15,450 bases of DNA. It comes from Chloroflexota bacterium (lineage in GTDB: Bacteria; Chloroflexota; Dehalococcoidia; JACPQK01). The position numbers and the translations under genes were made by a program. The notes under the pieces are model-generated. The model had not been told where the DNA came from. It saw nothing but the letters and a program-made list of their open reading frames with translations, and did no database searches. The DNA is taken from positions 1-15,450 of the forward strand of contig JACPQK010000051.1 in the NCBI GenBank assembly GCA_016190535.1, in the 5' to 3' direction. This document shows positions 288-9,983 of the stretch, piece by piece; positions within the stretch are counted from its first letter, which is position 1, and each line of letters opens with the position of its first letter.

Positions 288-1016
288 GTGTCAGTAGCAC
301 CGTTTCAGCGGGGGGCATCTTCCACAAAGCGGACGGTCCTGCTCGTGGAAGACGAGGAGAACCTGCTGGAGGCCCTCAGATATAGCCTCCAGCGGGAAGG
401 CTATGCGGTGCTCGCCGCCACGGATGGCGAAGAGGCCCTGGAGGTCGCCCGGCAGGCCGATCCGGAACTGGTCATTCTGGACATCATGCTCCCCAAGTTG
501 GACGGCCTCGAGGTATGCCGTATCCTGCGCCGGGAGAGCCAGGTCCCCATCCTGATGCTCACTGCCAGGGCCGAAGAGGTAGACCGGGTAGTAGGCCTGG
601 AGCTGGGGGCCGACGACTACGTCACCAAGCCCTTCAGCATGCGGGAGCTCATGGCCCGGGTGCGGGCCCTGCTCAGACGCTCCAGCCTTTCCGTGGGAGC
701 ACCATCGCAGCCCCCCCAGGTGCTCACGGCGGGGGACCTGGAGATAGACCTTGCCGGTCATACCATCACCCGCGGCAGAGCACCCCTGGAGCTGAAGCCC
801 CGGGAGTTCGATCTGCTGGTCTTGCTGGTGGCAAACAAGGGCAGAGCCTTCACCCGGGACCAGATACTGGGACGCCTTTGGGGCCATGACTACATCGGGG
901 ACATCCGCACCGTGGACGTCCACATCCGCTGGCTGCGGGAGAAGATAGAGACCAATGCCAGCAGCCCCCAGCGTATTGTTACTGTTCGTGGGGTGGGCTA
1001 CCGGTTCGACGGATGA
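288..1016 (+). CDS. phoB: OmpR/PhoB-family response regulator, phosphate regulon type
   Basis: This 242-residue protein is a cytoplasmic two-component regulator. The receiver domain (about residues 16-130) has the acidic pair E21/D22, the phospho-acceptor D65 in LVILDIMLP, the switch T92 in LMLTAR and K114 in DDYVTKP. After a short linker, the winged-helix DNA-binding domain (about 149-240) ends with the conserved VRGVGYRF. Start: GTG at 288, four bases after GGAAGGGA; the ATG at 283 is out of frame and soon stopped. The stop codon overlaps the ATG of the kinase gene (ATGA), so the two are translationally coupled. Pairing with a PAS-containing kinase directly upstream of pstS makes the phosphate regulator (PhoB in Gram-negatives, PhoP/RegX3 in Gram-positives) the best assignment. 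The family is clear; the signal is inferred from context. Confidence 0.85.
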
Positions 1017-2776
1017 GGTTCTACCACTCCCTCGGGTGGCGTATTGTCCTGGCCTACACCGGCCTCATCTTCATCGCCATGGGTGCCGTGAGCCTCTACC
1101 TGGTGGATTTCGTCCGTGACAGCTACATGTCCAGCCTGGAAGAGCGCCTGAAACAGGAGGCCGGCCTCGTCGCTGAGACCGCCACCCCTTACTTTCGTGG
1201 CCCGCTGGACCCTGCGGGACTCCAGGTAGTGTCCCAGCGCATGAGCAACCTCATTGATGCCCGGGTCACGCTCATAGCCCGGGACGGCACGGTGCTGGCC
1301 GATACCTGGGAAGACCCTACGGCCATGGACAACCACAGGACCCGCCCCGAGGTCCAGAGCGCCCTGAGCTCTGGCCTGGGCTTGGCCACTCGAGTGAGCG
1401 CTACGGTAGGGCAGGAGTTGCTCTACACCGCTGTGCCCATCCATGTGGAGGGCACCGGGATGGGGGTGGCCCGGGTAGCCGTGCCCGTCTCCCAGGTCCA
1501 GGACAACGTCAATCGGATTATCTCTACCATCGCCCTGTCCGCCCTGGTTGTGGCATTCTTTTCCATCGCTCTGGGCTATTTCCTGGCCCGGCGGACCTCC
1601 CGGTCAGTGCGCACTGTAGCTGAGGCGGCCCATCGCCTGGCCGCTGGCGACCTGGAGCACCGGGTGGAGGCCCTCGCCTCCGACGAGACCCAGGAGCTGG
1701 CTACCGCCTTCAACTGGATGGCGACAGCTCTACGGGACATAGTCCGGGACCTGTCGGGGGAGCGGAACAAGCTGGTAGCAGTCCTGGATACCATGGCTGA
1801 CGGTGTGGTGGTCATCCAGCCTGGTGGCGAGATCGGCCTCCTTAACCGGGCAGCGGAAGGACTCCTCGACTTGCCAGGGGCCCGAGCCGCGCCCGTCCGG
1901 TTTATGGAGGCAGTCCGGGACCACGAGCTCCAGGGCCTGGTGTCTAGAGCGCTGGAGACCCAGAGGCAGCAACAAGGCGAGGTGGAGCTCTTCTCCCAGC
2001 GTCGTACCCTGAGTGCCATCGCCACACCCTTGTCCGGAGATGGGTCCGCCGGCGTCCTGCTCACCCTGCATGACCTGACCCGCATGCGGCGAGTGGAGAC
2101 TACTCGGAAAGAGTTCGTGAGCAATGTGTCCCACGAGCTGCGCACCCCTCTGGCCTCTGTCAAGGCCATGGTAGAGACCCTGGAGGACAGCGCCCTGGAT
2201 GAGCCAGCGGCGGCCAGGGACTTCGTCCGGCGTATCCACGGGGAGATAGACCGCATGAGCGCCATGGTGGCCGAGCTGTTGGAGCTGGCCCGTCTGGAGA
2301 GCGGCCCGCCAGCCCTCCATCCGGCCCCCCTGCAACTGGACCTGTTGGTGAGGGAGGTCAAGGGGCAGTTTGAGGCGCAGGCCCAAGCCAAAGGAATTGT
2401 CATGGAAGCCACAATCCCTGACACGTTGCCCCGGGTCTGGGGAGCGCCGGAGAAGCTCCGCGCGGTGTTGGGCAACCTCCTGGACAATGGGCTAAAGTTT
2501 ACCCCGGCCGGGGGGAAGGTTACTATAGCCGCCAGAGTAGAGGGGCGCTATGTGGCTGTCTCGGTGAGCGACACGGGCATCGGCATTGCCCCCGAGCACC
2601 TCCCCCATATCTTCGAACGGTTCTATAAGGTGGACCACTCCCGGCGGGACGAGGGCACAGGCCTGGGTTTGGCCATCGTCAAACATATTGTCCAGGCCCA
2701 TGGAGGAGAGGTTCGGGTGGAGAGCCGAGAGGGGATGGGGAGCACCTTCACCTTCACCCTGCCTCGCGCCACCTAG
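1013..2776 (+). CDS. phoR: membrane sensor histidine kinase, PhoR type (HAMP-PAS-HisKA-HATPase)
   Basis: This 587-residue kinase is the partner of the preceding regulator. A first transmembrane helix lies at about residues 9-31 and a second at 169-192, enclosing an extracytoplasmic domain of roughly 135 residues. A HAMP linker follows (about 193-245), then a PAS-like domain (about 253-350, starting [12 protein letters not shown]). The dimerisation/phosphotransfer domain has the H box [13 protein letters not shown], with phospho-acceptor H374. The ATPase domain shows the N box NLLDNGLKF (488-), G1 DTGIGIA (520-526), F box FERFYKVD and G2 EGTGLGLA (547-554), so it looks catalytically intact. 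The large outside domain is longer than in E. coli PhoR, which has almost none, and resembles Gram-positive PhoR kinases. The ATG overlaps the phoB stop. Phosphate sensing is inferred from the adjacent pst operon; direct ligand binding by the outside domain remains possible. Confidence 0.85.
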
Positions 2777-2793
2777 CGCATCTCCCTAGTACT

Positions 2794-2835
2794 CATCGAG
2801 AGGCCCTCCCCCTCGAGGGGGAGGGCCTCTCGATG
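2794..2835 (+). terminator. perfect 42-bp palindrome after phoR, probable terminator
   Basis: The 21 bases beginning CATCGAGAGGCC are followed by their exact reverse complement, centred on CTCGAG. As RNA this is a stem of 19 bp with a four-base loop, 17 bases after the phoR stop. The following bases (TTCATGTTAC) are only weakly T-rich, so it is not a textbook intrinsic terminator. It may act as a transcription end, an RNA 3'-end stabiliser or a barrier between the regulatory pair and the pst operon. The first PHO-type repeat begins at its last base. Confidence 0.65.
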
Positions 2836-2878
2836 TTCATGTTACGTTCACCAAACCCTAAACGAACGTTAACGCTAT
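2835..2878 (+). promoter_or_regulatory. PHO-box-like array A, four 11-bp direct repeats
   Basis: Four consecutive 11-base units read GTTCATGTTAC, GTTCACCAAAC, CCTAAACGAAC and GTTAACGCTAT. The first two and the fourth share GTT(C/A)A at the same phase; the third is degenerate. PhoB/PhoP-type regulators bind head-to-tail on 11-bp direct repeats, and GTTCA-type units are known from actinobacterial PHO boxes, so binding by the adjacent regulator is the likely role. No convincing -10 sits at the expected distance; candidates are TATGAC (2876-2881) and TACTAC (2903-2908). Confidence 0.6.
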
Positions 2879-2882
2879 GACA

Positions 2883-2978
2883 AAGGCCTGTTCAAGAACA
2901 GCTACTACGCTAGAGGTGGAAAGGAGGTGAACCAATGAAAAGACAACCGGTGCAAACTTCCGATCTTAAACAGGCCTT
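2883..2978. repeat. 10-bp inverted repeat flanking the small ORF start
   Basis: AAGGCCTGTT at 2883-2892 is exactly complementary to AACAGGCCTT at 2969-2978. If transcribed from the upstream array this would close a long hairpin around the Shine-Dalgarno sequence and first codons of the 18-codon ORF. Bases 2888-2901 (CTGTTC-AA-GAACAG) form a competing local hairpin that uses part of the left arm. An RNA switch is conceivable but is only inferred. Confidence 0.4.
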
Positions 2979-2991
2979 AGACAATTGTTAA
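2935..2991 (+). CDS. possible 18-residue leader peptide upstream of pstS
   Basis: ATG at 2935 opens an 18-codon frame (MKRQPVQTSDLKQALDNC, stop TAA at 2989-2991). Its ribosome-binding site, AAAGGAGGTGA at 2920-2930, is the closest match to the anti-Shine-Dalgarno sequence in the window and lies four bases from the ATG, which is the main reason to take so short a frame seriously. The peptide is hydrophilic, with no signal sequence and no recognised domain. The end of the frame overlaps PHO-type array B, so it would be translated only from a promoter upstream, probably at array A. It could be a leader peptide, a small regulatory protein or a chance frame. Confidence 0.35.
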   Translation: MKRQPVQTSDLKQALDNC

Positions 2992-3008
2992 AGCTCCGTT
3001 AAAGTTCC
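2965..3008 (+). promoter_or_regulatory. PHO-box-like array B, four 11-bp direct repeats before pstS
   Basis: Four consecutive 11-base units read CTTAAACAGGC, CTTAGACAATT, GTTAAAGCTCC and GTTAAAGTTCC; the core (G/C)TTA(A/G)A is kept in all four. These resemble the TTAACA-like repeats bound by Bacillus PhoP at 11-bp spacing. The array ends five bases before a TATTAT -10 element, so it takes the place of a -35 hexamer, as in PhoB-activated promoters where the activator recruits polymerase. It is the best candidate for phosphate-starvation control of pstSCAB-phoU. Confidence 0.7.
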
Positions 3009-3013
3009 TAGGC

Positions 3014-3019
3014 TATTAT
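3014..3019 (+). promoter_or_regulatory. -10 element of the pstS promoter
   Basis: TATTAT lies five bases after PHO array B and no -35 hexamer is present, the usual layout for an activator-dependent promoter. Transcription would begin near 3026, inside the GGAGAGG ribosome-binding site of pstS. The transcript would then be nearly leaderless, or the operon depends mainly on a promoter further upstream. Confidence 0.5.
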
Positions 3020-3034
3020 CGTGGAGAGGTGACA

Positions 3035-4153
3035 ATGAGCTATAGGCAACAACCCCTGTTCTTGAAGGCCATTAGCGGCCTTCTGGCTGCGGCAATACTT
3101 CTGGTCGCCGTGGCATGTGGCGGCTCGACCCGGCAAGCAACCCCTACAGCGGCTTCTTCAAGTCCTACCGGCACAATCCGTCTGAACGGTACCGGTGCCA
3201 CCTTCCCCTATCCCCTCTACTCCCGCTGGTTCGATGAGTATGCCAGGGTGTACCGCACTCAGGTAAACTACCAGTCCATTGGCTCGGGTGGGGGCATCCG
3301 GCAGATTACCGAGGGCACGGTGGACTTTGGCGCCTCCGACGGCATTATGACCGACCAGCAGGAAGCGGCAGCGGTGCAGCGCTATGGCCCTATCCTCCAC
3401 ATCCCCATGGCTATGGGGGCAGTGGCGGTGGTCTATAACCTGCCCAGCATCGCCAGCGGCCAGTTGAAGCTGACGCCTGACGTGCTGACGGATATCTACC
3501 TCAAGAAGATCACCCGCTGGAGCGCCCCCCGTATCACGGCGATCAACCCGGGGCTCAGCTTGCCCAGCCAGGAGATTGCCGTTGTCCACCGCTCGGACGG
3601 CTCCGGCACCACCTTCATCTTCACCAACTATCTCTCTAAGGTCAGCCAGGAGTGGAAGGAGAAGGTAGGGAACGCCACGGCGGTGAACTGGCCGGGAGAC
3701 ATCGGCGGCCAGGGCAATGAGGGGGTGGCAGGGCAGGTGCGCCAGATACCGGGGGCTATCGGCTACGTGGAGCTGGCCAACGCCAGGCAGACCAATCTCC
3801 CCTGGGTAGCCCTGGGGAACGCCGCCGGCAACTTCATCGCCCCCAGCCTGGAGGCCACCAGCCTGGCCGCTCAAGGGGTAACCCTGCCCGAGGATATGAA
3901 GGTCATGGTCACCAACTCCCCTAACCCCCAGGCCTATCCTATCTCCGGTTTCACCTGGCTCCTGGTCTATGAGCAGCAGCGAGATTGCACCAAGGGCAAG
4001 GCCCTAGTGGACATGCTGTGGTGGGCCATCCACGATGGCCAGGGCTACGCGCCCCCTCTGGACTATGCGCCGCTGCCGCCGGACGCGGTGGCCCAGGCGG
4101 AGACCCAGATCCGCTCCATCACCTGCGCTGGCCGGCCGCTCTTGGAGAGTTAG
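3035..4153 (+). CDS. pstS: phosphate ABC transporter, substrate-binding lipoprotein PstS
   Basis: PstS captures inorganic phosphate outside the membrane and delivers it to PstC/PstA. The 372-residue product starts with a lipoprotein signal: basic MSYRQQPLFLK, a hydrophobic stretch, and lipobox VAVA before C28, so it should be lipid-anchored. A short Ser/Thr/Pro-rich tether follows. Phosphate-pocket motifs are GTGATFPYPLY (52-62), FGASDG (98-103) and SDGSGTT (187-193); GAIGYVELA near residue 240 is also typical. I chose ATG at 3035 because GGAGAGG (3023-3029) then lies five bases upstream; an in-frame GTG at 3029 would overlap that site but would be usable on a leaderless transcript. It is the first gene of the operon, behind PHO-type array B. 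Length fits the family. Confidence 0.93.
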   Translation: MSYRQQPLFLKAISGLLAAAILLVAVACGGSTRQATPTAASSSPTGTIRLNGTGATFPYPLYSRWFDEYARVYRTQVNYQSIGSGGGIRQITEGTVDFGASDGIMTDQQEAAAVQRYGPILHIPMAMGAVAVVYNLPSIASGQLKLTPDVLTDIYLKKITRWSAPRITAINPGLSLPSQEIAVVHRSDGSGTTFIFTNYLSKVSQEWKEKVGNATAVNWPGDIGGQGNEGVAGQVRQIPGAIGYVELANARQTNLPWVALGNAAGNFIAPSLEATSLAAQGVTLPEDMKVMVTNSPNPQAYPISGFTWLLVYEQQRDCTKGKALVDMLWWAIHDGQGYAPPLDYAPLPPDAVAQAETQIRSITCAGRPLLES

Positions 4154-9311: not shown

Positions 9312-9780
9312 ATTGGCTCCTGGATTCTAAGGGGTCTCTCACCTTTCTGCTACCCCAGACCAACGCAAATGTTACAGTAGCTCCTCGAGGTCGTTTAGCA
9401 AACCCTTTTCAAGCCCCTGAATCCCCACGTCTTGGGGGACTTTTTGAATTTGGGGGATACCCGGGCACCCTCTGGGTGGGCGTTTTCAATCTCCACCCAC
9501 TTCCACCCTTAAGAGCGTAGAACCCGCCCACCCCAAAACAGCATGGGTGAATTACGTTAATTGTCACCCTGAGAGTTTGTGAGGAAATTTGTTTTGGGCC
9601 TCACCCAGAGAACCGAGCCAGATCCGAAATCATGCCTGCCCACAGGCCCAATCGAGAAAAACTCGCAGGCTCTCAGCATGGCACGTGGCGGGGGCTTTTC
9701 CCCCGTTAGGTGAAGCTGCGCTAGCCGAATCGCTGATCTTGGGCCCAGCCCAAACGGTGAGTTGAGCTTCAAGAAGCTCA
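9312..9780. repeat. gene-free stretch of degenerate palindromic repeats
   Basis: No gene is supported here. Visible structures are: a CCCC..TTGGGGGAC..GAATTTGGGGG block (9415-9460), like C/G-rich repeats common in Chloroflexota and cyanobacterial intergenic DNA; TGGGTGG/CCACCCA (9473-9499); CCCAAAACA/TGTTTTGGG (9532-9540 with 9590-9598) enclosing GGGTGA/TCACCC; the hairpin CGGGGG-CTTTT-CCCCCG (9689-9705); and GAGCTTC-AA-GAAGCTC (9764-9779). Open frames that cross these structures are not convincing. Confidence 0.55.
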
Positions 9781-9807
9781 CCCACGGGGTGGGTGCCCGG
9801 GCTTGTT

Positions 9808-9917
9808 TGTCATTGCGAGGCACGAAGTGCCGAAGCAACCTCTATCCCAACCCCCGCCGGCCTGGAGATTGCTTCGCAGGAGTTTACCCTGAGGCCGCCG
9901 AAGGGCTCGCAATGACA
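9808..9917. mobile_element. MITE-like palindromic element with TGTCATTGCGAG ends
   Basis: TGTCATTGCGAG (9808-9819) is the exact reverse complement of CTCGCAATGACA (9906-9917). Inside, GAAGCAACCTC (9832-9842) and GAGATTGCTTC (9865-9875) are inverted with one mismatch. This nested layout matches a widespread class of small intergenic elements seen in many bacterial genomes as GTCATTGCGAG...GAAGCAATCTC. It has no coding capacity. It lies upstream of the RAM-domain gene, so an apparent longer reading frame for that gene running through it is spurious. Confidence 0.65.
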
Positions 9918-9983
9918 GGCAAGAATTCCTATCCACAGATTACGGGCCCGCTACGGGGCTGGTGCTCTCGCATGCAGTTAGAT

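What the first reader, a model, noticed from the sequence alone, without database searches (positions are those of the whole stretch)
2835..3019. Two separate four-unit PHO-box arrays before pstS
Array A (2835-2878) and array B (2965-3008) each hold four head-to-tail 11-bp units. Over the eight units, T at position 3 is invariant and A at position 5 is kept in seven. The types differ: GTTCA-like (actinobacterial style) in A, (G/C)TTAAA-like (Bacillus style) in B. Array B ends five bases before TATTAT, as in activator-dependent PhoB promoters. Two arrays 86 bases apart suggest two promoters, or cooperative/looping control, for one operon.
Basis: partly seen in the sequence, partly recalled or inferred. 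Interest (0 to 1): 0.7.

Follow-up and report, generated by a model that had tools for sequence, protein, structure and literature searches.

The report
Tandem phosphate-starvation promoters before pstS
In front of a bacterial phosphate-uptake operon there appear to be two complete, back-to-back switches of the ordinary phosphate-starvation type, where the related bacteria examined have at most one, and the extra one seems to drive a tiny 18-amino-acid reading frame.

Summary
In detail: head-to-tail 11-bp arrays lie at 2835-2878 and 2965-3008, and they are the two best sites of the window under a matrix built from relatives alone. The arrays are conserved: of 60 Chloroflexota pstS loci scanned (56 distinct), 31 (28 distinct) carry one, the window included, and only the window has two separate ones. 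By that rule B has its -10 at 3014-3019. A continues in phase for two more units, to 2900 (the first of them weak), and has its own -10, TACGCT, at 2906-2911 (P about 0.0005). So A looks like a six-unit second promoter. It faces a strong Shine-Dalgarno and an 18-codon ORF (2935-2991) whose start region resembles that of pstS (1 of 436 control starts aligns as well), suggesting duplication of promoter plus start. 'Two site types' and DNA looping are not supported. This is a lineage-specific elaboration of the known PHO box; binding and transcription are untested.

The parts
288..1016 (+). Response regulator of the OmpR/PhoB class, the presumed binder of the arrays (start 288 or a little downstream)
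   Evidence: NCBIfam: best models YycF 258.6, MtrA 250.9, PhoB TIGR02154 239 bits (cut-off 296.2), all below their cut-offs; best solved relative M. tuberculosis RegX3, 2oqr
1013..2776 (+). PhoR/PnpS/WalK-like sensor kinase
   Evidence: NCBIfam WalK 373, PnpS 345.7 (cut-off 400), PhoR 280.6 (334.2), all below cut-offs
2794..2835 (+). Perfect 21-bp inverted repeat, terminator-like hairpin between phoR and the arrays; its last base is the first base of array A
2835..2878 (+). Array A as reported: four 11-bp units
2879..2900 (+). In-phase units 5 (weak, score -1.6) and 6 (GTTCAAGAACA, score 4.2) of array A
2906..2911 (+). TACGCT, proposed -10 of promoter A, 5 nt after unit 6
   Evidence: same hexamer at the same place in L110
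2921..2930 (+). AAAGGAGGTG, Shine-Dalgarno of the short ORF
   Evidence: sequence
2935..2991 (+). 18-codon ORF MKRQPVQTSDLKQALDNC with stop; ends inside array B
   Evidence: start region resembles the pstS start
2965..3008 (+). Array B: four 11-bp units
3014..3019 (+). TATTAT, -10 of promoter B, 5 nt after the array
   Evidence: spacing rule
3035..4153 (+). pstS (ATG 3035; GTG 3029 possible), first gene of pstSCAB-phoU
   Evidence: TIGR00975 375 bits, cut-off 205; 372-aa form listed for this contig

Best explanation
Two complete activator-dependent promoters stand in tandem between phoR and pstS. Phosphorylated regulator from 288-1016 binds head-to-tail on the 11-bp units (inferred) and brings RNA polymerase to a -10 placed 5 nt after the last unit (geometry shown by comparison; activation inferred). 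Promoter B (2965-3019) starts the pstSCAB-phoU transcript about 9 nt before the pstS ATG (inferred). Promoter A (six units and -10, 2835-2911) starts an RNA that first carries the 18-codon ORF and then runs on into pstS (inferred). The hairpin at 2794-2835 separates both from phoBR. B looks like the counterpart of the relatives' single promoter; A is the extra one, perhaps from a tandem duplication of promoter, ribosome site and first codons (suggestive only). The simplest effect is a stronger or more finely graded response of one operon to phosphate starvation.
For: Arrays far above chance. 31 of 60 Chloroflexota pstS loci carry an array (28 of 56 distinct), 15 of the 31 with a phoR-like gene just upstream. 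TANNNT exactly 5 nt after the fourth unit in 11 of 14 loci picked on array score alone, 9 of 392 at out-of-phase offsets; in 11 further distinct loci 5 at exactly 5 nt and 8 in phase within one unit, 1 of 308 out of phase. In-phase extension of A to unit 6, 5 nt, TACGCT: random continuations do as well in 0.0005 of 20,000 trials; a model of one unit + 5 nt + -10 ranks B's last unit (2998) first and A's unit 6 (2890) second of 30,858 positions; the six-unit model ranks 2835 first of 30,748. L086 is a single array with six in-phase units. Aligning the whole region with L083 and L113 picks block B as the counterpart (P 0.004 and 0.002). ORF start aligns with pstS start: 1 of 436 control starts as good.
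Against: No binding or transcript data. Unit 5 of A is weak (unit-level P 0.11), and unit 6 also forms the palindrome CTGTTC-AA-GAACAG (2888-2901), which could be another protein's site. With two-unit and four-unit models, other in-phase frames of array A score slightly higher than the frame ending at TACGCT (2857 over 2879; 2835 over 2857). A plain sigma-70 scan flags neither -10; it flags a different + strand site, TAGACA-16-TAAAGT at 2978-3005 inside array B, and one - strand site. The -10 matrix came from hand-picked loci. 29 of the 60 loci have no array, including L084 and L085, two of the three most similar PstS.
Confidence: 0.62

Rival explanations
1. Only B is a promoter; A is an upstream accessory cluster of regulator sites that raises occupancy at, or loops to, B and has no start of its own.
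For: The four strongest units of A are followed at 5 nt by AGGCCT, not a -10; A's TACGCT rests on a weak unit 5; the relatives' single promoter aligns with B.
Against: Unit 6 and TACGCT fall in phase at the same 5-nt spacing (P about 0.0005), and a strong ribosome site with ORF follows at once. None of the other 55 distinct loci shows a separate upstream accessory array.
Confidence: 0.22
2. The stretch between the arrays is a regulatory leader: the short ORF or RNA structure in the A transcript controls pstS expression by attenuation or translation coupling.
For: Strong ribosome site and ORF; RNA 2878-3040 folds better than most shuffles (z -2.2, 6 of 200 shuffles as good).
Against: The strong stem uses bases upstream of A's predicted start; RNA from 2918 folds like shuffles (z -0.29, 79 of 200 as good). 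No Rfam match in the window at gathering scores. No Shine-Dalgarno-led ATG ORF ending before pstS was seen in the 18 leaders listed.
Confidence: 0.08
3. The arrays serve another OmpR-family regulator (YycF/MtrA-like) and are not PHO boxes.
For: The neighbouring regulator misses the PhoB equivalog cut-off and scores higher with the YycF and MtrA models; OmpR-family proteins share direct-repeat binding (general knowledge).
Against: The arrays lie before pstS in 31 of 60 loci, in 15 of these with a phoR-like gene just upstream; 11-nt direct repeat units before pst genes are the recorded Pho target (PMC4415409, PMC7866108, passages).
Confidence: 0.06

Closest known systems
E. coli PhoB PHO box (11-nt direct repeat units) and its -10
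   Same: Head-to-tail 11-nt units placed just upstream of a -10 of the form TAN3T/A; PMC1906773 gives 8-bp repeats with 3-bp linkers 10 bp upstream of the -10 (passages); PMC4415409 gives two 11-nt units per box (passages).
   Different: E. coli core is CTGTCAT; here TT(A/C)A. Two separate arrays with an ORF between them.
Streptomyces PhoP operators (GTTCACC units, simple and complex operators)
   Same: 11-nt units with GTTCACC core, as in unit 2 of array A; operators with strong and weak units, e.g. a -2.8-bit unit in the S. filipinensis phoRP operator (PMC6283541, passages).
   Different: The S. coelicolor and S. lividans pstS operators are described as two units or two boxes in tandem (PMC2605767, PMC7866108, passages); here six plus four units as two promoters.
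Cyanobacterial SphR Pho boxes (CTTAACCT, three or more repeats)
   Same: Core CTTAAC and 11-bp period, close to the Chloroflexota units (PMC1906773, passages).
   Different: No doubled promoter was seen in the passages read.
Single-array pstS promoters of other Chloroflexota (L083, L113, L109, L086 and others)
   Same: Same units and, in most, the same 5-nt rule, often directly after a phoR-like gene. L083, the nearest, departs from the rule: TATAGT stands at 10 nt and CACACT at 5.
   Different: One array each; no Shine-Dalgarno-led ATG ORF ending before pstS in the 18 leaders listed.

Membership tests
PHO box (PhoB/PhoP operator) | Head-to-tail direct repeat units of 11 nt with a conserved core | tested here: met
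PHO box (PhoB/PhoP operator) | Found upstream of pst genes and conserved in relatives | tested here: met
   31 of 60 Chloroflexota pstS loci, 28 of 56 distinct; 29 without
PHO box (PhoB/PhoP operator) | Fixed short distance to a -10 element | tested here: met
   11 of 14 at 5 nt; further set 5 of 11 at 5 nt, 8 of 11 in phase
PHO box (PhoB/PhoP operator) | Bound by the phosphorylated Pho regulator and active under phosphate limitation | not testable with these tools
   needs footprint and transcript mapping
Regulator as PhoB equivalog | NCBIfam TIGR02154 above curated cut-off | tested here: not met
   239 bits against 296.2; also below the cut-offs of the YycF and MtrA models
Array A as an independent Pho promoter | -10 at 5 nt after the last in-phase unit | tested here: met
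   TACGCT after unit 6, P about 0.0005, but unit 5 is weak
Two classes of site (actinobacterial in A, Bacillus in B) | The two unit types occur in separate arrays, not mixed | tested here: not met
   TTCA and TTAA units in one array in L083, L110, L103; array A itself holds both
Tandem duplication of promoter and start | Sequence similarity of the two blocks beyond shared motifs | tested here: inconclusive
   P 0.0005 by shuffles, 1 of 436 control starts as good, but one gapped alignment chosen after the fact

The most novel reading that the evidence does not exclude
A whole pstS promoter-plus-start module was duplicated in tandem, and the upstream copy was kept as a working Pho-induced gene for an 18-aa peptide, or as a second switch with another threshold (six units against four), giving this lineage a two-step phosphate response from one operon.
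Probability: 0.2. Interest if true: 0.5.

Novelty: new member of a known kind. Interest (0 to 1): 0.32.

Why it matters
The comparison gives a testable sequence rule for phosphate-starvation promoters in Chloroflexota (11-bp units, 5 nt, TANNNT), which could help annotate Pho targets in this phylum. The doubled promoter is a natural case for asking what a second copy of such a promoter adds. A full-text search for 'Pho box', Chloroflexi, PhoB and regulon together gave one paper, seen only in the listing, and one for Dehalococcoid, 'phosphate limitation' and pstS gave none; that is only weak evidence that the rule is undescribed, since many papers are not held.

Tried and rejected
Leader attenuation: RNA from the predicted start of A folds like shuffles. 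Rfam: no match in the window at gathering scores. A at position 6 as a mark of the last unit: 10 of 22 last units against 18 of 66 inner units, P 0.12, not significant. An array before phoB: the best + strand site starting in 1-288 scores -11.5. A hairpin between phoR and the array as a general feature: of 10 loci folded, window -41.1, L083 -28.9, L109 -20.8, the other seven weaker than -8 kcal/mol, and some of these stretches include the end of phoR. Searches among relatives of G025 and of G016 (10 of 80 genomes each) gave no new loci; the family of G025 held one genome.

Errors of mine and limits: read loci from minus-strand matches in the wrong orientation; redid this, and the conclusions do not rest or 26. 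The 15 loci of the matrix were picked by eye from the list after I had seen the -10s; three (L096, L111, L103) had low array scores. The 14-of-15 spacing count is therefore biased; one search gives the set picked by score alone (11 of 14; misses L083, L072, L038). The second set (13 loci) wrongly held L163, which is L057 again, and L072, already in the first set; one search recounts it without them (11 loci). Even so, L154 is close to L031 and L159 to L057. Among the 60 loci, four are repeats (L082 = L001, L156 = L031, L163 = L057, L010 = L106), and five of the 60 have only 230-470 bases before the pstS match, not counting repeats (L081, L106, L157, L031, L080); L102 and L108 were left out for having too little. 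The 22 loci were chosen to have TANNNT, so their -10 letters at positions 1, 2 and 6 are circular. Each genome search returns at most 30 loci, so loci with less similar PstS were not read.

Full report
WHAT IS THERE. The window is a 15,450-base contig; no whole genome is held for it. Its PstS relatives are Chloroflexota, Dehalococcoidia among them, as far as sources name them. Gene order on the + strand is response regulator, PhoR/PnpS-like kinase, pstS, pstC, pstA, pstB, phoU. The stretch between phoR and pstS (2777-3034) holds a perfect 21-bp inverted repeat (2794-2835), array A, an 18-codon ORF behind a strong ribosome site (2935-2991), array B, and TATTAT.

CHECK OF THE OBSERVATION. The stated coordinates and letter counts are right. 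The arrays are not chance: none of 2,000 random sequences of the same make-up reached their score, and a matrix from 60 units of 15 relatives, without the window, places B and A first and second of about 30,000 positions.

CONSERVATION. PstS relatives were taken from 393 genomes of the class of G001 (33 with E <= 1e-100) and 400 genomes of the phylum (105 with E <= 1e-80); each call gives at most 30 loci. Of 60 Chloroflexota pstS loci with at least 150 bases before the match, 31 carry an array scoring 12 or more (6e-5 per position on reverse strands), the window included. Four of the 60 are repeats, so 28 of 56 distinct loci. Two loci were flagged with two arrays, L086 and the window; L086 is one array of six in-phase units, so the window alone has two separate ones. 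29 loci have none, among them L084 and L085, two of the three with the most similar PstS (75%); no PhoR match lies in those two loci. The most similar loci with the phoR-pstS order, L083 and L113, have a single array each. In 15 of the 31 a phoR-like gene ends just upstream.

THE FIVE-NUCLEOTIDE RULE. Among 14 distinct loci chosen only by array score with the window-trained matrix (score 11 or more), 11 have TANNNT exactly 5 nt after the fourth unit; L083, L072 and L038 do not (L083 has TATAGT at 10 nt). Out-of-phase offsets between 0 and 30 give 9 of 392. In 11 further distinct loci, 5 have it at exactly 5 nt and 8 in phase within one unit; out-of-phase offsets give 1 of 308. This resembles the E. 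coli arrangement as told in PMC1906773 (passages): repeats 10 bp upstream of a -10 TAN3T/A.

ARRAY A IS LONGER THAN REPORTED AND HAS A -10. Five bases after the fourth unit of A stands AGGCCT, no -10. But units continue in phase: 2879 GACAAAGGCCT (-1.6; as good in 11% of random places) and 2890 GTTCAAGAACA (4.2; 1%). Five bases after the sixth unit comes TACGCT, the hexamer of L110. Random continuations do as well with frequency 0.0005; none of 20,000 letter shuffles did. One unit + 5 nt + -10 ranks 2998 (promoter B) first and 2890 (promoter A) second of 30,858 positions; six units + -10 rank 2835 first of 30,748. With two or four units the frame ending at TACGCT ranks third, behind B and behind a frame of A without -10. 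Weak units inside operators are on record: PMC6283541 (passages) lists a -2.8-bit unit in a PhoP operator. Against this, unit 6 also forms CTGTTC-AA-GAACAG, perhaps another protein's site, and a plain sigma-70 scan flags neither -10 but a + strand site inside array B (2978-3005).

THE SHORT ORF AND A POSSIBLE DUPLICATION. Promoter A faces AAAGGAGGTG and an ATG opening 18 codons; promoter B faces GAGAGGTG and the pstS ATG. The two start regions align with score 20; 1 of 436 other gene starts with ribosome sites from the fetched loci does as well against the ORF start (0 of 299 with G+C above 0.55), and 0 of 436 against the pstS start; shuffles give P 0.0005 for the stretches after the arrays. 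The simplest history is a tandem duplication of promoter and start, with the upstream coding part cut to 18 codons. Aligning the whole region with L083 and L113 picks block B, so A would be the added copy. This was noticed after the fact and rests on a gapped alignment.

MECHANISM. Shown: arrays, their conservation, the -10 spacing. Inferred: binding by the neighbouring regulator (PhoB-like by context; below the PhoB cut-off; nearest solved structure RegX3), activation at both -10s, starts near 2918 and 3026, run-on from A into pstS. The hairpin after phoR suggests that pst needs its own promoters, though such a hairpin is not general. Attenuation is unlikely: RNA from 2918 folds like shuffles (z -0.29), and the stronger fold needs bases upstream of that start.

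Two promoters: supported, on better evidence than given. Two site types: not supported, since TTCA and TTAA units mix within single arrays, A included. Looping: not favoured, with a 64-bp gap.

LITERATURE. Seen as passages: PMC4415409, PMC1906773, PMC2605767, PMC6283541, PMC7866108. Other papers were seen only in listings. Statements on DNA stiffness and OmpR-family binding are general knowledge, from no call.

VERDICT. A real, conserved PHO-box promoter (B) and a probable second, six-unit promoter (A) peculiar to this lineage among the loci examined. Known kind, unusual doubling, modest interest.

Noticed in passing
101-223: 21-nt inverted repeat (95% complementary, 81 nt between the arms) upstream of the response regulator gene; could be a small mobile element or a hairpin.
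   Followed up: no
9802-9923: 18-nt inverted repeat (89% complementary, 86 nt between the arms), and a longer-range one at 9460-9480 / 9781-9801, in a region of lower G+C; looks like a small repeat element.
   Followed up: no
2878-2897 and 2964-2983: 20-nt inverted repeat (85%) whose arms overlap units 5-6 of array A and units 1-2 of array B; no explanation beyond chance or shared motifs.
   Followed up: partly
2888-2901: Palindrome CTGTTC-AA-GAACAG covering unit 6 of array A; possible site of another regulator.
   Followed up: no
L057 4625-4685, L157 and L159: Pst loci of other Chloroflexota with a five-unit array, the last unit ATTAAAGCGA(T/C), then AACTG and TACAAT, more than 200 nt before the pstS start in L057.
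   Followed up: partly
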